Shown here piece by piece: positions 5,820 to 18,906 of a stretch of DNA of 64,000 nucleotides. How positions within the stretch are numbered: the stretch's first letter is position 1; the number at the start of each line of letters is the position of its first letter. Below the pieces are notes generated by a model. It was given only the letters and a program-made list of their open reading frames with translations. It was not told the origin of the DNA and searched no databases. This DNA comes from Herpetosiphon geysericola. Its GTDB lineage: Bacteria; Chloroflexota; Chloroflexia; Chloroflexales; Herpetosiphonaceae. The stretch is from NCBI RefSeq assembly GCF_001306135.1, contig NZ_LGKP01000012.1, forward strand, positions 62,001 through 126,000, read 5' to 3'. The translations under genes and the position numbers were made by a program.

Positions 5820-6944
5820 ATGACCCATTCATCAGACATCAAACCGGAATCGTGGTTAGTTTCAGCGGGTCGTGGTTCGCAGCCAGGTGATCCACTGAAT
5901 GTGCCGCTGGTGCCGGCCTCGAACTTTCTGATTGGCAGTGGCCGTGAATATTCGCGCGATGATGGCACGCCAACGTGGGAGGCACTTGAAGCGCTGGTTG
6001 GTGGCTTAGAAGGCGGTAAAGCGCTGGCGTTTGCCTCAGGCATGGCGGCGATTGCGGCAGTGTTTGATCAGCTGGCGGTTGGCGCGCTGGTGGTGCTGCC
6101 CGATGATTGTTATCAAGGAGTTGCAGGGTTGGCCATAGCTGGAGCTGAGCGCGGACGTTGGACGTTGCAGCGTATTGGAGTTGATGATACTGCTGCATGG
6201 GTTGCTGCTTGTGCTACTGCCGATTTGATTTGGCTAGAATCGCCATCAAATCCATTGCTGACAGTTGCCGATTTAGCGGTTATTTGTGCAGCGCCGCGCA
6301 AAGCAAGCGCGATTGTTGCGGTCGACAATACTTTTGCGACTCCGCTCAACCAACAGCCGCTCAAATTTGGGGCAACTGTGGCCTTGCAATCAGCAACCAA
6401 ATTTATTGGCGGGCACTCAGATTTGTTGGCGGGCGTTGCGACAACCAACGATCTTGGCTTCTGGCATGCGATTAAGAAATCGCGTGAACTAACTGGAGCC
6501 ACACCCGGGACGCTTGAGGCTTATCTCGCGGTGCGTGGTGCGCGGACATTGGCAGTGCGGCTTCAGCGGGCGCAACAAAGTGCAATGCTACTAGCCGAGC
6601 GGCTTGAAGCGCATCCACATGTGATGCGCGTGCGCTATCCTGGCTTGGCCTCGCATCCAACTCATGCGACGGCGCAACGGGTGCTTAAAGGCTTTGGCAC
6701 GATTATTTCATTTGATCTCGTGGGCGGAGCTGAGGTTGCTGATGCGGTTTGTCAGCATGTGCAATTAATTCAGCATGCAACTAGCCTTGGGGCGGTTGAA
6801 TCGACGATGGAACGGCGCGCGGCAATTCCTGGGCAGGAGCATCTGCCGCCATCGTTATTGCGTTTGAGTGTTGGGATTGAGGATGGAGAAGATCTGTGGA
6901 CTGATCTTGCAGCAGCGATCGAGGTTGCAACCAGCAAAATTTAA
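5820..6944 (+). CDS. Cys/Met metabolism PLP enzyme (cystathionine gamma-synthase/lyase family)
   Basis: 374 residues, the normal length for this fold-type I family. The PLP lysine is in SATKFIGGHSD (about residue 195), preceded by the conserved VDNTFATP. The N-terminal SGMAAI and the C-terminal RLSVGIED motif are also typical. These enzymes build cystathionine from an activated homoserine and cysteine, or cleave it; the exact reaction cannot be decided without alignment. The start at 5820 has GGGAG upstream and follows the promoter at 5745. A PatB-type C-S lyase lies 5 kb away, so sulfur amino acid genes are loosely grouped here. Confidence 0.85.
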   Translation: MTHSSDIKPESWLVSAGRGSQPGDPLNVPLVPASNFLIGSGREYSRDDGTPTWEALEALVGGLEGGKALAFASGMAAIAAVFDQLAVGALVVLPDDCYQGVAGLAIAGAERGRWTLQRIGVDDTAAWVAACATADLIWLESPSNPLLTVADLAVICAAPRKASAIVAVDNTFATPLNQQPLKFGATVALQSATKFIGGHSDLLAGVATTNDLGFWHAIKKSRELTGATPGTLEAYLAVRGARTLAVRLQRAQQSAMLLAERLEAHPHVMRVRYPGLASHPTHATAQRVLKGFGTIISFDLVGGAEVADAVCQHVQLIQHATSLGAVESTMERRAAIPGQEHLPPSLLRLSVGIEDGEDLWTDLAAAIEVATSKI

Positions 6945-7077
6945 GCCTAGTGCGTGGCTTAATCTGTAATCGATGGCAGCTGAGAATTTGGTCGAATCGA
7001 GATTCACCAACTTTTCAGCGCTCCGTTGGTGGGAAATGTCTGGGGCTTTAATCTGTGCTTTAACAGGCATTGATCAT

Positions 7078-7142
7078 CACCACCCTTCCGTCCCGCCTCA
7101 AGGCGGGAAACGCAGAGCGATCAAACTCTTGCGTTTCCCTTG
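7078..7142. repeat. Dispersed CCCTTCCGTCCCGCC repeat, copy 1
   Basis: Starts with CACCCTTCCGTCCCGCC, followed by a CCCGCC/GGCGGG hairpin and then an AAACGCA/TGCGTTT hairpin. The same leading phrase occurs near 19034 and 56079, each time between genes and each time followed by a different stem-loop. The stretch 6945-7199 holds no gene that I can support. Confidence 0.7.
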
Positions 7143-12317: not shown

Positions 12318-13898
12318 CTAAGGAATTACGCCAATTTCGCTTTGAGGATCGGTATCCCAATTACCTACAATTGGATAATTCCCTGGATCGCCATACATAA
12401 ACGAGAGATCGGCCCAACCACCGTTGAACTTGTTGGAGAGATGCCACTTATTGCCGCGCACAACGCCAGGCGTGTCATCGCCATCGCCATCCCAATCGCC
12501 AACGATGAATGTATCCCCAAGCTCACCAAACCCAAGGGAAATATCGGCCCAACCACCATTCAGATTGTTGGAAAGATACCAAGTTATACCACGCACAACA
12601 CCAGGGGTATCATCGCCATCGCCATCCCAATCGCCAACAACCGGAATATCGCCAGGCTCGCCAAAACCGAGGGAGAGATCGGCCCAGCCGCCATTGAGGC
12701 TATTTGAGAGATACCATGTTGTGCCTCGGAAAAGGCCAGGGGTATCTTTGCCATCGCCGTTCCAATCGCCAACGACCGGAATATCGCCCAGCGAGCCGTA
12801 CTCAAAGCTGATTGTAGAGGGTTCGCCATAGCTATTTGAGAGATACCACATTGTGCCGCGCACAACGCCAGGGGTGTCATCGCCATCACCATCCCAATCG
12901 CCAACGATTGGAATATCATTGGGCTGGCCATAATGGAAAGAAAAGTCAGCATTACCACTTGATAAGCTATTGCGTAGATGCCATTTGGTTTGATGTTGCG
13001 GCCCACTAGTATTAACCCACACCGAGCCTGATTCATAGCCTTCTAAGACCGTAGTTCCACCAGTCGTAGAAACAGCACGAGCCTGAATTTGATAGCGGCT
13101 AGCAGTAATCCGTGATGTATCCCATGCAAAGCTCCAACCAAAGTTGCCACCTTGATCACTACGATATTCACCATAGTTGGCATTGCCAAGTTTGATGTAA
13201 TTTTGATAACTTGGGATATACATCCAAATTTCAACCCGATCGATTGCGCCACCAGGCGTAGGCTGATAGCCATTCGATTGAAATGATCGGGTAACTTTTG
13301 CCCAACCACGAATTGTTGTAACGCCCGTTACCATACTATTAGAGGCTGGACTTTCGATTCTGCCCATGTCAGGATAGGTTGGCATCCACAGATTTGTTGT
13401 ATCAGGATTGATGCCAGTATTGCCTTGATAGACCCAAAAATGCAGATGATTGCCTGTTGCACAACCACTATTGCCACTATTGCCAATGACTTCACCTGCA
13501 AAAATTTGATCGCCTGCTTTCCATTGTTGACCTGTACGCGGATTTGTGCCGAATGAGCCAAGATGCAGATAGCCTGTAGCATAACTATTTTGGTGATCAA
13601 TTCGAAATTCGCGCTCAAAACTACCGTTAAACGAAACCCCGCTCCCGCAATTTCGTGGTGGATTTGTGCCTACTCGATTAACCACTCCATCACCAGCGGC
13701 TACAATTGGACTTGTTCCAGTTGGGAAATCTACCGCATAGCCATTGTGATAGCCCTGACTGCGATTATAAACCGTCCATGAAGGGTTGCGCAGAAACTTT
13801 TGATTTGGGGCGGCTTGACTGACGCTTGGTTGCCCAATGATGATTAAACTCAAGCCTAACCAAAGAACTAGCAATGAAGCTACTCGTTTGTAGTGCAT
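12318..13898 (-). CDS. Secreted M23 peptidase with five FG-GAP-like repeats
   Basis: 526 residues. A signal peptide (residues 1-29) is followed by an M23/LytM domain (about 30-165) with zinc residues in YHNGYAVDF and GNHLHFWVY. A beta-sandwich spacer comes next (about 180-295). From about residue 300 to the end are five units built around GDWDGDGDDTPGVVRG, the Asp-rich FG-GAP/VCBS calcium-binding pattern; the final unit is divergent (GNWDTDPQSEIG). M23 domains cut peptidoglycan cross-bridges or glycine-rich peptides outside the cell. The propeller-like repeats may bind the wall or a prey surface. The start has AAGGAG upstream. Confidence 0.88.
   Translation of the reverse strand: MHYKRVASLLVLWLGLSLIIIGQPSVSQAAPNQKFLRNPSWTVYNRSQGYHNGYAVDFPTGTSPIVAAGDGVVNRVGTNPPRNCGSGVSFNGSFEREFRIDHQNSYATGYLHLGSFGTNPRTGQQWKAGDQIFAGEVIGNSGNSGCATGNHLHFWVYQGNTGINPDTTNLWMPTYPDMGRIESPASNSMVTGVTTIRGWAKVTRSFQSNGYQPTPGGAIDRVEIWMYIPSYQNYIKLGNANYGEYRSDQGGNFGWSFAWDTSRITASRYQIQARAVSTTGGTTVLEGYESGSVWVNTSGPQHQTKWHLRNSLSSGNADFSFHYGQPNDIPIVGDWDGDGDDTPGVVRGTMWYLSNSYGEPSTISFEYGSLGDIPVVGDWNGDGKDTPGLFRGTTWYLSNSLNGGWADLSLGFGEPGDIPVVGDWDGDGDDTPGVVRGITWYLSNNLNGGWADISLGFGELGDTFIVGDWDGDGDDTPGVVRGNKWHLSNKFNGGWADLSFMYGDPGNYPIVGNWDTDPQSEIGVIP
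12340..12960 (-). repeat. About 132-bp tandem repeats inside the M23 gene
   Basis: The phrase encoding GDWDGDGDDTPG recurs at regular spacing (near 12490, 12625, 12760 and 12895 on the plus strand), with near-identical DNA between copies. This is the DNA counterpart of the FG-GAP modules and suggests recent internal duplication. Confidence 0.75.
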
Positions 13899-14007
13899 AA
13901 TCCCACTCCTTCACTAATTGAATGCAGTAATTTTTGATGAACCTTGAATTTCAACCACACTCCTTTTACAAAATTTAAACATTTGAGTTGAGCAGAGTAT
14001 AACGATC

Positions 14008-14038
14008 GCGGTATAATTGCGCTGCTAGGATCTCCTAG
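14008..14038 (+). repeat. 31-bp duplicated element with TATAAT and CTAGGA hairpin, copy A
   Basis: Identical to 16123-16153 except for one base. It contains TATAAT (14012-14017), with a TTGAGC hexamer 18 bp upstream (13988-13993), followed by the small inverted repeat CTAGGA/TCCTAG. It sits just 3' of a LuxR-type HTH gene in both places. It could be a promoter firing antisense into the HTH gene, or a remnant of the segment that duplicated. Confidence 0.6.
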
Positions 14039-14053
14039 TAATTAAGGGTTATG

Positions 14054-14278
14054 CTAGGCATCCCTAGCATGCTGCGTGGGTTCAAGCGCAAGATAGGCTA
14101 ACGTGGCACTGACCCGATTATCAACATTGAGTTTGGTGTAGATGCGGTGGAGGCTGGTTTCAATCGTGCCTTCGGTGGTGTGCAACAGGTGGGCAATCGC
14201 TTTGTTGGTTTTGCCTTGAATCAGAATTTGCATAATCCGCTGCTCGTTAACCGTAAGTTGAACTGTTTGCTTGCTCAT
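14054..14278 (-). CDS. Stand-alone LuxR-type HTH protein
   Basis: 74 residues, essentially one GerE/LuxR DNA-binding domain (LTVNEQRIMQILIQGKTNKA, then TTEGTIETSLHRIYTKLNVD). It has no receiver or sensor domain. The start has AAGGAG five bases upstream. A close paralogue lies at 16167-16382, and the pair share their 3' flank. Small single-domain HTH proteins of this kind bind DNA directly and may compete with or pair with larger LuxR-family proteins. Target and signal are unknown. Confidence 0.85.
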   Translation of the reverse strand: MSKQTVQLTVNEQRIMQILIQGKTNKAIAHLLHTTEGTIETSLHRIYTKLNVDNRVSATLAYLALEPTQHARDA

Positions 14279-14534
14279 CGATGCTCCTTTGGCGTAATGA
14301 TGCCTAACTCAAGCTTGAATCGATGCTCATGGATGCAGGCATGGCTATGCTGGCTGCAAACCGCCTGCCATCCATGAACAATGGTTTACCCAATCTAGCT
14401 GGATAGTTTGAGCGTTCTGCAAGCGGCAAAAACGCATGAGGAACCTGTTGCAAGCATTGCTCTCTCGTTGTGAAACATTGAATTATGGGTTAGCACGATA
14501 ATACCCAATCGTCTAGGAAAACACATCGCTATAT

Positions 14535-14756
14535 TTAGCGATTTTTGCCCTGCGCCGCCGGTTTGAGCGCTTGCAGATTGCGGGCGGCATAGACTGCTTG
14601 TTGGCGCGATTTAACCCCAAGTTTGCTCGCGCTATTGCGCAGATGGGTGCGCACAGTCCAAATCGAAATATCCAAACGTTGGGCAATTTCTGCATCACTA
14701 CAGCCTTGGTCAACCAATTCCAACACATCACATTCACGCGCACTCAGGCTATTCAT
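14535..14756 (-). CDS. Second stand-alone LuxR-type HTH protein
   Basis: 73 residues, a GerE-type HTH domain (LSARECDVLELVDQGCSDAE, then DISIWTVRTHLRNSASKLGV) with a short basic tail. It is clearly different in sequence from the duplicated pair at 14054 and 16167. AAGGAG lies ten bases before the ATG at 14756. It is transcribed divergently from the XRE-sensor gene at 14958, so it may regulate that gene; this is inferred from position. Confidence 0.8.
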   Translation of the reverse strand: MNSLSARECDVLELVDQGCSDAEIAQRLDISIWTVRTHLRNSASKLGVKSRQQAVYAARNLQALKPAAQGKNR

Positions 14757-14957
14757 ACGGCACAGGCTCCTTGCTTCAATTAAGCATGAATTTGCGATTC
14801 ACGCTGTTTAGTTGGTCTGAATTCCGTATGCTGCGCAGCACAAGAACTTGATGCAGCTACTCTACCAAGCTGCTGCACGTTGCAGTTATGTTTTTTTAGC
14901 ACTCGCAAACCAATTGCAGCTTTGAACAGCCAATCGGGTGGATTTTCAGGGGGAATA

Positions 14958-15944
14958 ATGGATTATCGCTATCAAGCCTATACTTTTGCCGAATTGTTAC
15001 GCATCTTTTTTGAACGCAGCCGTAGCGAGATACTCAATCAAAATAGTTTGGCCCAAACAGTTGGCGTGTCGGTGCCAACCCTCAGTAATTGGTTCACTGG
15101 CAAACATACGCCGCGCTTCAAAGATCAGGTCTTGCGTTTAGCCACTGCCTTGGGCTTGACGGCACTAGAGGCCGATTTGCTGCTGTGTTCGGTCAAAGAA
15201 GCATGGAACACCTATAACACGCCGCATGATGTTTTGCAGAAATATGCGATTGTGCGCTATCGCGAGGAGTTGGTTTCGCGGGTCGATGGAGTTGCGGAGC
15301 TGGATGTTTCGCTGGCGACGGTGCAATCAACATGGCAACTTATGATTCACGATACGTTTGTTTCAAATAGCCAGCATTGGGGCTTGGGCTATAAAGATGA
15401 TGGGGTTTGTCGCGTTGAACGAACGATGATCAACGGTAATTATCAACTAACCTTACATAATCGTTTTCATAATGATGTTTTTATTGGTGGCGATTCTCAC
15501 TGTTTTGCGCCACCAAGCTATTACCTGAGCGTCTATGCTCAACGAGTCGCAGGCGGCAGCGAAAACGATGGTTTTGCGCTTATTTTTGAAGAAATTAGCG
15601 ATGCCAGCCACGCAATTTTTCGCATTCGCGACCAACTGCAAATTGCGTCGGTGATTAGCACGCGCAACGGTGGCGACTATTTTCAGATTCACCTTGATCG
15701 CACGAATGCCCCAATGATCCGTCCAGCTGAGTTTAATCAATTGGGCTTGTTGGTTGTTGGGCGCAAACATCGGTTTTTTATCAATAATGTTTGGGTTGGT
15801 TCGGCAGAAATTGAGCGTTTGCCGCAGGCGCGGCTTGATCTTGGAATTATTAGCCAATCGCCAACTCCGGTTATTTGCCGTTTCCAAGATTTTCGGCTCT
15901 ATACGCCCCCAAATAGCTTCGCAGCCGACGAACATTCCGATTAG
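14958..15944 (+). CDS. XRE-type HTH protein with C-terminal lectin-like sensor domain
   Basis: 328 residues. Residues about 8-75 form an XRE helix-turn-helix (NSLAQTVGVSVPTLSNWFTG). From about residue 130 (WQLMIHDTFVSNSQHWGLG) to the end is a beta-rich region resembling the extracytoplasmic part of the Ser/Thr kinase at 17155: both begin DTF..N..W, have RHRFFINN or MAVFINDRY near the end, and close with a F.DF.LY.PP or FDNLYLAVPP phrase. Such domains look like concanavalin/LamG sandwiches that bind sugars. The ATG at 14958 has AGGGGG upstream. The protein is cytoplasmic (no signal peptide). Confidence 0.75.
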   Translation: MDYRYQAYTFAELLRIFFERSRSEILNQNSLAQTVGVSVPTLSNWFTGKHTPRFKDQVLRLATALGLTALEADLLLCSVKEAWNTYNTPHDVLQKYAIVRYREELVSRVDGVAELDVSLATVQSTWQLMIHDTFVSNSQHWGLGYKDDGVCRVERTMINGNYQLTLHNRFHNDVFIGGDSHCFAPPSYYLSVYAQRVAGGSENDGFALIFEEISDASHAIFRIRDQLQIASVISTRNGGDYFQIHLDRTNAPMIRPAEFNQLGLLVVGRKHRFFINNVWVGSAEIERLPQARLDLGIISQSPTPVICRFQDFRLYTPPNSFAADEHSD

Positions 15945-15989
15945 TCAGCAACAAATGTCGCTTTAAATTGCGCCAACAAGTTATTAAAC

Positions 15990-16043
15990 AAGCTCAGGGT
16001 ATCGGCCCAAATCGATGCTGCTTCAGGCCGATACCCTGAGCTT
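15990..16043 (+). terminator. Stem-loop terminator after the XRE-sensor gene
   Basis: A perfect 18-bp stem, AAGCTCAGGGTATCGGCC (15990-16007) with its complement at 16026-16043, and an 18-base loop, starting 46 bases after the stop codon. It has no long T run, so termination may be partly intrinsic. Confidence 0.7.
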
Positions 16044-16122
16044 TGATCACAATCTGCGAGTTGCTGAAGCCTGAACATGGCTGCTTGCTAGCGTAGTTGG
16101 CAGTGAGCAACATGTATGGATT

Positions 16123-16153
16123 GCGGTATAATTGCGCTGCTAGGATTTCCTAG
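16123..16153 (+). repeat. 31-bp duplicated element, copy B
   Basis: One mismatch to 14008-14038. TATAAT at 16127-16132 has GTGAGC 18 bp upstream (16103-16108). GCTAGGA-TT-TCCTAGC follows as a perfect 7-bp hairpin. It lies 3' of the second copy of the LuxR-type HTH gene. Confidence 0.6.
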
Positions 16154-16166
16154 CATGTTGGTAGTC

Positions 16167-16382
16167 CTAGCGTTGATGAGTAGGTTCAAGCGCAAGATAG
16201 GCCAGCGTCGCACTGACGCGATTATCAACGTTGAGTTTGGCATAAATCCGATGCAGGCTACTTTCAATCGTGCCTTCAGTCGTTTGCAACAGGTGCGCGA
16301 TTGCTTTGTTGGTTTTGCCTTGAATTAGAATCTGCATAATGCGCTGTTCGCTGGCGGTCAGTTGGGTTGCTGGCTTGGGCAT
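16167..16382 (-). CDS. Stand-alone LuxR-type HTH protein, paralogue
   Basis: 71 residues from the ATG at 16382, which has GGAG six bases upstream; the frame is open to 16430 but without an RBS. The sequence is almost the same as the protein at 14054 from SEQRIMQILIQGKTNKA to LAYLALEPT, differing mainly at the ends. It is a single GerE-type domain. Together with copy B of the 31-bp element it marks a local duplication surrounding the XRE-sensor gene. Confidence 0.85.
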   Translation of the reverse strand: MPKPATQLTASEQRIMQILIQGKTNKAIAHLLQTTEGTIESSLHRIYAKLNVDNRVSATLAYLALEPTHQR

Positions 16383-16507
16383 AGATACTCCGTTTGGCTT
16401 GATTGCTTTGATGCTGCTCATCCTACCCAACAGGCGCGCAAAGATCTATTTAGATCGCCTTTAATCAAGCTAAAACTTTTTTGACTATCTGCCGAGGTAT
16501 CTCGTCG

Positions 16508-17158
16508 ATGACAATCACTAGATTGGCCTTGGCCAAACTCCTTGCAACTGATAGTGCGATTACTCCGCAAAGTTGTTTTCTTTTTGATCAACCGTGCACA
16601 ATTGGCCGTATGGTTGATAATACGGTGCATATTGATAAACGCAACGTTTCGCGCTATCATGCCGAAATTTATTTTGCTGCTGAGCACTTTTGGTTGCTTG
16701 ATCGGGCAAGTCGCAATGGAACCTTTGTTAATGATTATAAGATTGAGCCAAATCAGCCCTATCGATTAAATAATAACGATAGCATTGGCTTTGGTACTAA
16801 TCGGCGCTTATTAGTATTTATGTGTGATAATGCAACCACTGAGATAGAAGCCCAAACTGAATATACATTATTATTCGAAGAGCAACAGTTGCAGTTTTAC
16901 CTTAATCAAACGCCTGTGCCAATTCGGGCTGGAACAATGAAATTTAAATTACTCAAACATCTCTATGATCAACGGGGTCGAATTTGTTCACTTGAAGCAT
17001 GTGTCCGCGCCTACCAAGCCCCAGATTATCGCTACCAACCAAGCTTGGATCACCCCAATTTGCATACCCATATGAGCCAATTACGCATGCTGTTGGCTGA
17101 TATTTATCCAGGCGAAATAATTGTGACCTATCCCAACCTTGGCTATAAGTTACTGTGA
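16508..17158 (+). CDS. FHA domain-winged helix regulator
   Basis: 216 residues. Residues about 20-95 are an FHA domain with its conserved residues (CTIGRMVDNTVHI, VSRYHAEI, SRNGTFVND), which bind phosphothreonine. Residues about 115-216 look like an OmpR-type winged helix (SQLRMLLADI, then IIVTYPNLGYKLL). The protein therefore probably reads a phosphorylated partner and binds DNA. Its stop overlaps the start of the Ser/Thr kinase gene by four bases (GTGA), so the two are coupled and the kinase is the likely source of the phosphate. The ATG at 16508 has GAGG ten bases upstream. Confidence 0.85.
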   Translation: MTITRLALAKLLATDSAITPQSCFLFDQPCTIGRMVDNTVHIDKRNVSRYHAEIYFAAEHFWLLDRASRNGTFVNDYKIEPNQPYRLNNNDSIGFGTNRRLLVFMCDNATTEIEAQTEYTLLFEEQQLQFYLNQTPVPIRAGTMKFKLLKHLYDQRGRICSLEACVRAYQAPDYRYQPSLDHPNLHTHMSQLRMLLADIYPGEIIVTYPNLGYKLL

Positions 17159-18906
17159 GTGGTGATCTGATGCATGAATTCAAGATCTTTGCCCAAGGCA
17201 GTTTGATTCAGCAGCGCTATGAGGTGCACGAAATTATCGGGCGCGGCGGCTCAGGAATCGTCTATAAAGCGCTTGATACAACTATTCGGCGCTGGGTGGC
17301 GATTAAGCAAATTGTGCATGAGGAAGCAAATTATGCGCGCTTTATTCCTGAAGCTCGGATTTTAGGCGGGCTTAATCATGCTGGTTTGCCGCAAGTCTTT
17401 GATTGTTTCGTTGAACAAGCAATGTTCTTTGTGGTGATGGAATTAATCGCAGGCGATACCCTCGCAGACCTTGTTACCCGTCAAGCTGCGCCGCTCAGCC
17501 TAGAGCAGGCCTTGGAATGGATCAACGCTTTGGGTGGGGTTATCGAATATTTACATCAGCAAACGCCGCCGATTATCCATCGCGATATCAAACCGCAAAA
17601 TATTAAAATTACCGCTCGCGGCAATTTGGTGCTGTTGGATTTTGGGTTGGCCCAAGGTTCATCCCAAGTTACGGCCAATTCGACAATTGATGAGGGTATC
17701 AACGGATTTAGCCCCAATTATGCGGCCTTGGAGCAGCGCAATGGCAACCCAGTCGATCAGCGCAGTGATTTGTATGCTTTGGCGGCAACCTTCTATTATG
17801 GCTTGACTGGGGTTGCGCCAGCCGATTCATTGGAGCGGGCGGTTGCAGTTGCGGCGGGCATGGCTGATCCCTTGATTCCATTAGCAACCCATCAGCCGAC
17901 GATTCCTAGCCACATTGACCATGCCTTTGCCCAAGCCTTGGCCTTAAATCCAGCGCTCCGCCCAGCCTCGATTGGCGATTTTAAACGCCAATTAGTGGCT
18001 TCGCCACTGGTTGTGCCACGGCAACGGCGCTGGCCTGTTCGGCTGGGATTGAGTTTTATGCTGCTGATTGGCTTGCTGATTATTGCCTATACAATCATTG
18101 ATCTGAATCGGATTGCTTCAGATCAATCAACTGAGTTGGCTCAAGCACTCCCATCGACTCCAAGACCTGCGGCTGCGCTTGATCAGGATGCGCCAACGCC
18201 AACCATCCCAAAGCCAACAATTTTGCCAGCGAGCCAATTGGTTGATCCTACGATTTTGCAAACCCAAGCTGCCCAATTACGGGCTGAAGCTGCCCAGTGG
18301 ACGCAGATTTTTTCTGATACGTTTGAGCTGAATCGCAATAACTGGTCCTTGACACCCACAATTGACGATTATGCCAATAGCACCCTCTCATTGCAAGCTG
18401 GCAAGCTTATTTTTGATGTAACCTCAAATACGCCAAGCGGCGCAATTGCTTGGAATTTGCAGCCAACGATGCCGTATGTTGAAGATTTTGCGCTGTCGGT
18501 TGATATTACCTGTGTTGTTTGCGAGCCTTCAACCGAGCCAGGCTTGGTTTTTCGCAAAAGTGGCTTGCTCAACGCTGAAACCTATTATTTTCTTTTGTAT
18601 GGTTTTGATCAACGGGTACGAATTATTAAGCAAGTGCCCTACGCTGCCTTGCGGGTTGGTTGGGATATGGCTCCAAGCATCGATCAGCGCAAGAATATGA
18701 CCCATCATGTAGAGTTGATTGTCAAAGGCGATCAGATGGCGGTCTTTATCAACGATCGCTATGCGCTCAAGGTCGAAGATAGCACCTACGCATCGGGCTA
18801 TCCGCATCTTGCGGTGTATGTTGAGGGCGCAACGACCGAGCAAGTAAGCTTCGATAACCTCTATTTAGCTGTGCCGCCGGATCACGTTAATCGTACCAAA
18901 CGCTAA
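17155..18906 (+). CDS. Membrane Ser/Thr protein kinase with extracytoplasmic lectin-like domain
   Basis: 583 residues. The Hanks-type kinase domain covers about residues 15-275: glycine loop IGRGGSGIVYK, VAIKQ lysine, HRDIKPQN catalytic loop, DFGLAQ magnesium loop. One transmembrane helix follows (about 296-316), then a Pro-rich stalk. An outer beta-sandwich domain runs from about 385 to 578 (DTFELNRNNWSLT to FDNLYLAVPP). The layout is a transmembrane receptor kinase; the outer domain resembles that of the XRE protein at 14958. Start codon GTG at 17155 overlaps the FHA gene; an ATG at 17170 is possible. Confidence 0.92.
   Translation: MSGDLMHEFKIFAQGSLIQQRYEVHEIIGRGGSGIVYKALDTTIRRWVAIKQIVHEEANYARFIPEARILGGLNHAGLPQVFDCFVEQAMFFVVMELIAGDTLADLVTRQAAPLSLEQALEWINALGGVIEYLHQQTPPIIHRDIKPQNIKITARGNLVLLDFGLAQGSSQVTANSTIDEGINGFSPNYAALEQRNGNPVDQRSDLYALAATFYYGLTGVAPADSLERAVAVAAGMADPLIPLATHQPTIPSHIDHAFAQALALNPALRPASIGDFKRQLVASPLVVPRQRRWPVRLGLSFMLLIGLLIIAYTIIDLNRIASDQSTELAQALPSTPRPAAALDQDAPTPTIPKPTILPASQLVDPTILQTQAAQLRAEAAQWTQIFSDTFELNRNNWSLTPTIDDYANSTLSLQAGKLIFDVTSNTPSGAIAWNLQPTMPYVEDFALSVDITCVVCEPSTEPGLVFRKSGLLNAETYYFLLYGFDQRVRIIKQVPYAALRVGWDMAPSIDQRKNMTHHVELIVKGDQMAVFINDRYALKVEDSTYASGYPHLAVYVEGATTEQVSFDNLYLAVPPDHVNRTKR

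What the first reader, a model, noticed from the sequence alone, without database searches (positions are those of the whole stretch)
14958..18906. Similar lectin-like sensor on a cytoplasmic XRE regulator and on a membrane receptor kinase
The C-terminal part of the XRE protein and the outer part of the kinase at 17155 share start (DTF..N..W), FIN(N/D) and closing F.(D/N)F.LY/LYLAVPP phrases. The same module inside and outside the cell may sense the same ligand, with the kinase passing the signal to the coupled FHA-winged-helix protein.
Basis: inference. Interest (0 to 1): 0.6.

Follow-up and report, generated by a model that had tools for sequence, protein, structure and literature searches.

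The report
Lectin-like sensors paired with secreted enzymes
A Herpetosiphon species carries the same sugar-binding-type protein module on a soluble gene regulator and on the outside of a membrane kinase; in this genus each such sensor sits beside a tiny LuxR-type regulator and, usually, a swappable gene for a secreted wall-degrading or sugar-binding protein, which looks like a modular scheme for controlling what these predatory bacteria secrete.

Summary
XRE residues ~123-321 and kinase residues ~379-578 are full-length homologues: profile-profile probability 97%, E 9e-11, score 72 against at most 21 in 200 shuffles. Direct BLASTP sees nothing. The module belongs to the concanavalin A-like / DUF1080 (PF06439) / CBM66 group, so 'lectin-like' holds at profile level; two AlphaFold attempts failed for lack of sequences. 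The XRE copy is soluble; the kinase copy is extracytoplasmic. 'Same ligand' is not supported: the domains are ~18% identical, lie in different parts of a tree, and the kinase lacks most polar residues invariant in XRE copies.

A larger pattern emerged. In Herpetosiphon each XRE or kinase sensor with this module is divergent from a GerE-only mini-LuxR gene. Behind it usually lies a secreted payload that changes between species at one site: M23, CHAP or C39 hydrolase, or ricin-B lectin. Payload promoters carry a 14-bp palindrome exactly 23 bp from a TATACT box; CTAGGANNTCCTAG occurs only twice in the 6.14-Mb genome, both at this locus. In the window the kinase cassette has lost its payload and that -10 box.

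Inferred model: glycan sensing sets mini-LuxR, which drives the secreted effector. Nothing was tested biochemically.

The parts
14958..15944 (+). XRE-lectin regulator, 328 aa: HTH about residues 20-74, linker, lectin-like module about 123-321; no TM or signal peptide
   Evidence: ORF; HTH_31 E 1.7e-5, HTH_3 E 9e-5, both just under the Pfam cut-offs; hydropathy; orthologues 77-97% identical over the module in 5 other Herpetosiphon genomes
15333..15911 (+). lectin-like (CBM66/DUF1080-type) module of the XRE protein, residues 126-318
   Evidence: hhalign, hmmsearch
16508..17158 (+). FHA + winged-helix protein (216 aa from ATG; longer ORF from 16481)
   Evidence: PF00498 E 5e-18; Trans_reg_C E 1e-5, just under cut-off; same ATG in H. 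llansteffanensis
17155..18906 (+). receptor Ser/Thr kinase, 583 aa; start overlaps FHA stop by 4 bp
   Evidence: PF00069 E 8e-33; HRDIKPQN and DFG present
18043..18099 (+). single transmembrane segment of the kinase (about residues 297-315)
   Evidence: Kyte-Doolittle 2.54
18292..18885 (+). extracytoplasmic lectin-like module of the kinase, residues 380-577
   Evidence: weak PF06439 match (E 0.026)
16167..16430 (-). mini-LuxR (GerE-only) gene of the kinase cassette, divergent from FHA-kinase
   Evidence: PF00196 E 8e-14; 79% DNA identity to the copy at 14004-14293
14054..14278 (-). mini-LuxR gene of the XRE cassette
   Evidence: PF00196 E 4e-14; orthologue in all six Herpetosiphon genomes
14535..14756 (-). 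second small LuxR-type HTH gene, between mini-LuxR and XRE
   Evidence: found by the mini-LuxR profile at E 3e-14 among six-frame ORFs; present in six species
12318..13898 (-). secreted payload of the XRE cassette: M23 peptidase with FG-GAP-like C-terminus
   Evidence: PF01551 E 3e-15; replaced by CHAP, C39 or ricin-B proteins at the same site in other species
14025..14038 (.). proximal palindrome CTAGGATCTCCTAG, 23 bp from the payload -10 box
   Evidence: genome-wide count
14054..14067 (.). distal palindrome CTAGGCATCCCTAG, 29 bp from the proximal one; overlaps the mini-LuxR stop codon
13996..14024 (-). candidate payload promoter CAGCGC-17-TATACT; an overlapping rightward TTGAGC-18-TATAAT lies at 13988-14017
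   Evidence: alignment A10, geometry, rightward match
16140..16153 (.). palindrome CTAGGATTTCCTAG of the kinase cassette; neighbouring leftward -10 and distal palindrome decayed, no payload gene
14828..14849 (+). 22-bp block ATGCTGCGCAGCACAAGAACTT with palindrome TGCTGCGCAGCA; candidate XRE operator
   Evidence: invariant and single-copy in six Herpetosiphon genomes

Best explanation
The shared module is a concanavalin A-like, CBM66/DUF1080-type carbohydrate-binding domain that has been attached to different outputs: a soluble XRE regulator, a membrane-anchored XRE, and a membrane Ser/Thr kinase paired with an FHA-winged-helix regulator. In Herpetosiphon these sensors head cassettes: sensor gene, divergent GerE-only mini-LuxR, then a secreted wall-lytic or glycan-binding payload whose promoter carries the palindrome CTAGGNNNNCCTAG. 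Most likely mechanism: sensing of a glycan (outside by the kinase, as an imported fragment inside by XRE) changes the activity of the sensor, which resets the divergent sensor/mini-LuxR promoter; mini-LuxR then binds the palindrome centred near -42.5 and activates the payload. Shown here: homology, topology, cassette organisation, promoter geometry, payload swapping. Inferred: ligand class, FHA phosphorylation, mini-LuxR as the palindrome binder, direction of regulation.
For: Homology. Fold group: a profile of 34 module sequences hits DUF1080-type 4jqt (E 5e-9) and the CBM66 structures of levanase (E 3e-8); XRE-TM, zinc-ribbon and other members pass or approach the PF06439 cut-off. Cassettes: mini-LuxR lies beside XRE loci A, B and C, the kinase locus, the membrane-XRE locus and G016:C24, although own-genome stand-alone copies are few (about 7 in 6.14 Mb). 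Payloads: M23, CHAP, C39, ricin-B, CBM4_9, GH62, trypsin; 17 of 18 neighbour genes look secreted against 12.6% of 183 background ORFs. The XRE-C39 pairing recurs in Oscillochloris, with payloads 42% identical over 554 aa. The palindrome-to-TATACT gap is exactly 23 bp in seven payload promoters with four payload types, 24 bp with a different palindrome in the membrane-XRE cassette; where the payload is gone the TATACT box is gone. Of 14 palindromes in six genomes 11 are in cassettes; reversed-pattern control 0.
Against: No structure model: both AlphaFold jobs had low confidence, and the XRE-only profile finds no solved structure by itself. Carbohydrate binding is by family analogy only. A stronger-looking promoter on the opposite strand (TTGAGC-18-TATAAT) overlaps the payload promoter, so the palindrome could instead control rightward transcription towards the sensor. 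Several sensors outside Herpetosiphon have no mini-LuxR (Oscillochloris, G016:C11, G024, G012), and one membrane XRE (G016:C30) has neither partner. Which gene counts as the neighbour allowed some choice (at G016:C11 the enzyme is the second gene).
Confidence: 0.55

Rival explanations
1. One reading: both modules recognise the same ligand inside and outside the cell, so XRE and kinase act as two arms of one response.
For: Homologous modules, genes about 1.2 kb apart in the window and H. llansteffanensis, parallel cassettes with the same palindrome.
Against: About 18% identity; XRE-specific polar residues absent in the kinase; separate clades; kinase absent from H. giganteus although its XRE module is 97% identical, and from H. 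aurantiacus and G004.
Confidence: 0.12
2. The module is a structural or dimerisation/anchoring domain, not a ligand sensor; regulation comes from the HTH, FHA or kinase parts alone.
For: The module also sits on zinc-ribbon-TM proteins with no obvious output; no ligand is known; kinase copies keep mainly scaffold residues.
Against: Invariant charged residues within the XRE clade suggest a conserved site; the related CBM66 domains bind sugars (PMC11002231).
Confidence: 0.25
3. The palindrome belongs to the rightward promoter TTGAGC-18-TATAAT and controls the sensor genes through transcription antisense across mini-LuxR; the payload association is incidental.
For: TATAAT and the palindrome stay intact in the two payload-less kinase cassettes while the leftward TATACT is lost; 10 of 12 consensus matches.
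Against: The rightward -35 is also altered in the payload-less cassettes (GTGAGC); constant 23-bp spacing to TATACT before four different payload types.
Confidence: 0.25
4. The cassettes are variable-payload systems of another kind (self/non-self, wall remodelling, or interbacterial antagonism) rather than food or prey sensing.
For: Payload catalytic domains swap at a fixed site while the C-terminus is kept (M23 to CHAP with 79-84% identical tails).
Against: No immunity gene recognised next to the payloads; GH62, ricin-B and CBM payloads suit glycan use as well as killing.
Confidence: 0.25

Closest known systems
CBM66 (C-terminal module of Bacillus subtilis levanase SacC; PDB 4azz, 4b1l, 4b1m)
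   Same: beta-sandwich carbohydrate-binding module; profile similarity over about 110 columns
   Different: known members sit on secreted enzymes and bind fructan ends or modified xanthan (PMC11002231); here on regulators, with very low identity and unknown ligand
PF06439 3keto-disac_hyd (DUF1080)
   Same: nearest Pfam family; several module relatives pass its cut-off. DUF1080 is a common periplasmic domain on Planctomycetota receptor kinases (PMC11032199)
   Different: the window's two copies do not pass the cut-off; soluble fusion to an XRE HTH was not found described in the held papers
RsgI/sigma-I polysaccharide sensors of Clostridium thermocellum (PMC4711584)
   Same: works like: outer carbohydrate-binding module, one TM, inner output, control of secreted glycan-active enzymes
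   Different: output is an anti-sigma factor; no kinase, XRE, mini-LuxR or adjacent swapped payload
PknH-EmbR of Mycobacterium tuberculosis (PMC9239209)
   Same: receptor kinase paired with an FHA and winged-helix transcription factor
   Different: EmbR is winged helix-BTAD-FHA; here FHA-winged helix without BTAD, genes overlapping by 4 bp, other sensor domain
XRE-cupin regulators (PMC7901475)
   Same: soluble XRE HTH plus beta-rich sensor, local control of neighbouring enzyme genes
   Different: sensor is concanavalin A-like, not cupin; neighbour is a mini-LuxR plus secreted payload
GerE-type stand-alone LuxR HTH proteins
   Same: 74-87 aa, HTH only, PF00196
   Different: tied to a lectin-type sensor and one local palindromic promoter

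Membership tests
Concanavalin A-like / PF06439 group | profile match above curated cut-off | tested here: inconclusive
   XRE module no hit, kinase module 15.0 bits against 26.8; relatives L030, L072 and L051 pass
Concanavalin A-like / PF06439 group | beta-sandwich fold | tested here: inconclusive
   mostly beta secondary structure but pLDDT mostly under 50
CBM66 | sequence relation to characterised CBM66 | tested here: inconclusive
   E 3e-8 for the 34-member profile, 0.033 for kinase-only, none for XRE-only
CBM66 | carbohydrate binding | not testable with these tools
   needs binding assays
XRE regulators | Cro/CI-type HTH | tested here: inconclusive
   HTH_31 25.5 against 27, HTH_3 22.8 against 23 bits; relatives L019 and L021 pass; HTH helices modelled with good confidence
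Receptor Ser/Thr kinase | kinase domain with catalytic motifs, one TM, outer domain | tested here: met
PknH-EmbR type pair | FHA and winged-helix regulator encoded with the kinase | tested here: met
   FHA E 5e-18, Trans_reg_C E 1e-5, 4-bp overlap
PknH-EmbR type pair | BTAD domain in the regulator | tested here: not met
   none found; hence analogous, not filed as EmbR
GerE-type LuxR | PF00196 HTH only, under 100 aa | tested here: met
RsgI/sigma-I | RsgI N-terminal domain and sigma-I partner | tested here: not met
   no such domains among Pfam hits; only works-like

The most novel reading that the evidence does not exclude
Herpetosiphon uses a plug-in regulatory cassette in which interchangeable lectin-type sensors (soluble XRE, membrane XRE, or receptor kinase + FHA factor) command the same kind of mini-LuxR/palindrome switch, while the secreted payload behind it is exchanged between species: a swap slot for predatory exo-enzymes and lectins under a conserved glycan sensor.
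Probability: 0.45. Interest if true: 0.75.

Novelty: new variant of a known kind. Interest (0 to 1): 0.6.

Why it matters
It joins one carbohydrate-binding-type module to three output types within one genus and ties each to a secreted effector, giving a concrete way to ask how wolf-pack predators choose what to secrete. H. llansteffanensis and H. aurantiacus are named isolates, so the palindrome, the mini-LuxR and the module's ligands can be tested directly. A soluble regulator with a domain normally found outside cells also raises the testable idea that it reads imported sugar fragments.

Tried and rejected
Direct BLASTP and single-sequence hhalign of the pair: no signal. AlphaFold for full XRE (5 sequences) and for the kinase module (7 sequences): too low in confidence for a fold search; the second alignment was also out of register by a few columns in places. 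Module relatives in viral contigs: none confirmed. First genome-contig query too diverse; the narrower one gave four named loci. Defence-system reading: PADLOC hits are generic kinase matches. Rfam: nothing. Kinase as the XRE gene's conserved partner: rejected, absent in three of six species. The idea that XRE and kinase modules are recent duplicates: rejected by identity and tree. An extra palindrome upstream of an 855-aa nucleotidyltransferase-like gene shows that the motif is not wholly confined to cassettes.
Full report
Setting. The window lies in a 6.14-Mb genome whose close relatives are Herpetosiphon species (named records), wolf-pack predators whose secreted hydrolase sets vary between species (PMC6210107).

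The observation. Their similarity is invisible to BLASTP (E 0.14) but clear with families. I aligned 17 XRE-type domains from 17 genes (A2) and 3 kinase orthologues (A1). Profile-profile comparison aligns 193 columns, XRE residues 123-321 with kinase residues 379-578, at probability 97% and E 9e-11. Two hundred column shuffles of the kinase alignment reach a score of 21.4 at most, against 72. An XRE-only HMM over all six-frame ORFs of the window and four relatives' loci finds only the XRE copies and the two kinase copies. Searching 60 genomes with each domain separately meets at the same third proteins.

What the module is. A 34-member profile matches the DUF1080-type protein 4jqt (E 5e-9) and the CBM66 domain of levanase (E 3e-8); a kinase-side profile matches CBM66 at E 9e-9. 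Some relatives pass the PF06439 cut-off. This places it in the concanavalin A-like group, where CBM66 members bind fructan ends or modified xanthan (PMC11002231). The window's own copies do not pass the cut-off and my two structure predictions were too poor to use, so the fold is inferred. In Chloroflexota the module occurs mostly outside the membrane, on kinases, zinc-ribbon proteins and others. The soluble XRE proteins have no TM or signal segment. With one TM-bearing relative (L030) they form a supported clade (100/97). A second XRE with a TM exists in this same genome (L010).

Same ligand? Of the positions nearly invariant in ten XRE modules, the three kinase orthologues keep mainly the scaffold (W126, F134, N137, W141, D148, F210, N276, P317). 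They lack R155, D179, S180, E211, R224, R248, R287, R292 and D294. Identity is about 18%. A shared origin is therefore supported; a shared ligand is not.

Kinase and FHA. The FHA-winged-helix gene overlaps the kinase by 4 bp, which suggests translational coupling. FHA-dependent phosphorylation of EmbR by PknH is the known parallel (PMC9239209), but EmbR has a BTAD and the reverse domain order, so this is analogy. DUF1080 on the periplasmic side of receptor kinases is already known in Planctomycetota (PMC11032199).

The cassettes. Comparing neighbourhoods changed the picture. The kinase is not a constant neighbour of XRE: it is missing in H. giganteus, H. aurantiacus and G004, and lies on the other side in G002. 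What is constant in Herpetosiphon is a divergent GerE-only mini-LuxR gene, found beside XRE loci A, B and C, the kinase locus and the membrane-XRE locus. Behind it lies a secreted payload. At locus A the payload is M23 in the window and G004, CHAP in H. llansteffanensis and H. aurantiacus, C39 in G002, ricin-B in H. giganteus. The M23 and CHAP versions share a C-terminus 79-84% identical behind different catalytic parts. In G002 the kinase cassette has its own ricin-B payload; in the window and H. llansteffanensis it has none. At locus B payloads are M23 with DUF5648, M23 with CBM4_9, or C39; at locus C CBM4_9. Outside the genus, XRE genes sit beside C39 (Oscillochloris; 42% identical to the Herpetosiphon C39 protein), GH62 and trypsin genes. 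Seventeen of 18 such neighbours look secreted by a crude rule, against 12.6% of 183 background ORFs. Neighbour choice had some freedom, and orthologous loci are not independent, so the binomial values printed there are only indicative.

The promoter. Upstream of the locus A and kinase-cassette payloads in all six species is a palindrome of the form CTAGGNNNNCCTAG, in most with a second copy 29-30 bp further away, then CAGCGC-17-TATACT. The gap from palindrome to TATACT is exactly 23 bp in seven promoters serving four payload types; the membrane-XRE cassette has a different palindrome (CAGGGTTATCCCTG) at 24 bp. With a start 7 nt downstream of the -10 box, the proximal palindrome centres near -42.5, the usual position for LuxR-type activation (general knowledge). 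CTAGGANNTCCTAG occurs twice in the genome, both at this locus; CTAGGRNNYCCTAG occurs 14 times in six genomes, 11 of them in cassettes, reversed control 0. In the two payload-less kinase cassettes the TATACT and the distal palindrome are gone. A caution: an overlapping rightward promoter (TTGAGC-18-TATAAT) is also conserved, and its TATAAT survives in those cassettes. A separate 22-bp block with TGCTGCGCAGCA upstream of XRE is invariant and single-copy in six genomes, a candidate XRE site.

Mechanism. I favour this chain: the sensor (XRE or kinase-FHA) reads a glycan, adjusts the divergent mini-LuxR promoter, and mini-LuxR drives the payload. In logic it resembles RsgI/sigma-I sensing (PMC4711584) and local XRE-cupin regulation (PMC7901475). 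Sequence shows the organisation; ligand, binding and direction are inferred.

Novelty. Each component is of a known kind. The soluble XRE fusion to this module, and the sensor/mini-LuxR/variable-payload cassette, did not appear in the papers searched, a limited library. I rate it a new variant of a known kind.

Noticed in passing
G000:C23:163422-163435 (L147:3423); L148:3354: One extra CTAGGAATCCCTAG palindrome lies about 165 bp upstream of an 855-aa nucleotidyltransferase-like gene (sequence resembles NDP-sugar pyrophosphorylases; not scanned); a same-sequence site exists in G003 too.
   Followed up: partly
window 14828-14849: 22-bp block ATGCTGCGCAGCACAAGAACTT, invariant and single-copy in six Herpetosiphon genomes, between the second LuxR-type gene and XRE.
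   Followed up: partly
L103:6185-7137 (G003:C5): The locus-C XRE-lectin gene of H. giganteus is split into two ORFs, apparently a pseudogene, with its mini-LuxR and CBM payload still present.
   Followed up: no
L051, L057, L093, L042, L059 and others: Zinc-ribbon + TM + the same lectin-type module is a common architecture in Chloroflexales, with no known role.
   Followed up: no
L137:7505-7750, L138 about 6900-7110: Other stand-alone mini-LuxR genes in this genome without a lectin-type sensor beside them; the L138 one adjoins a small secreted protein gene.
   Followed up: partly
window 13988-14017 +: Strong sigma-70-like promoter match overlapping the payload promoter on the opposite strand, pointing antisense into mini-LuxR and on towards XRE.
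   Followed up: partly
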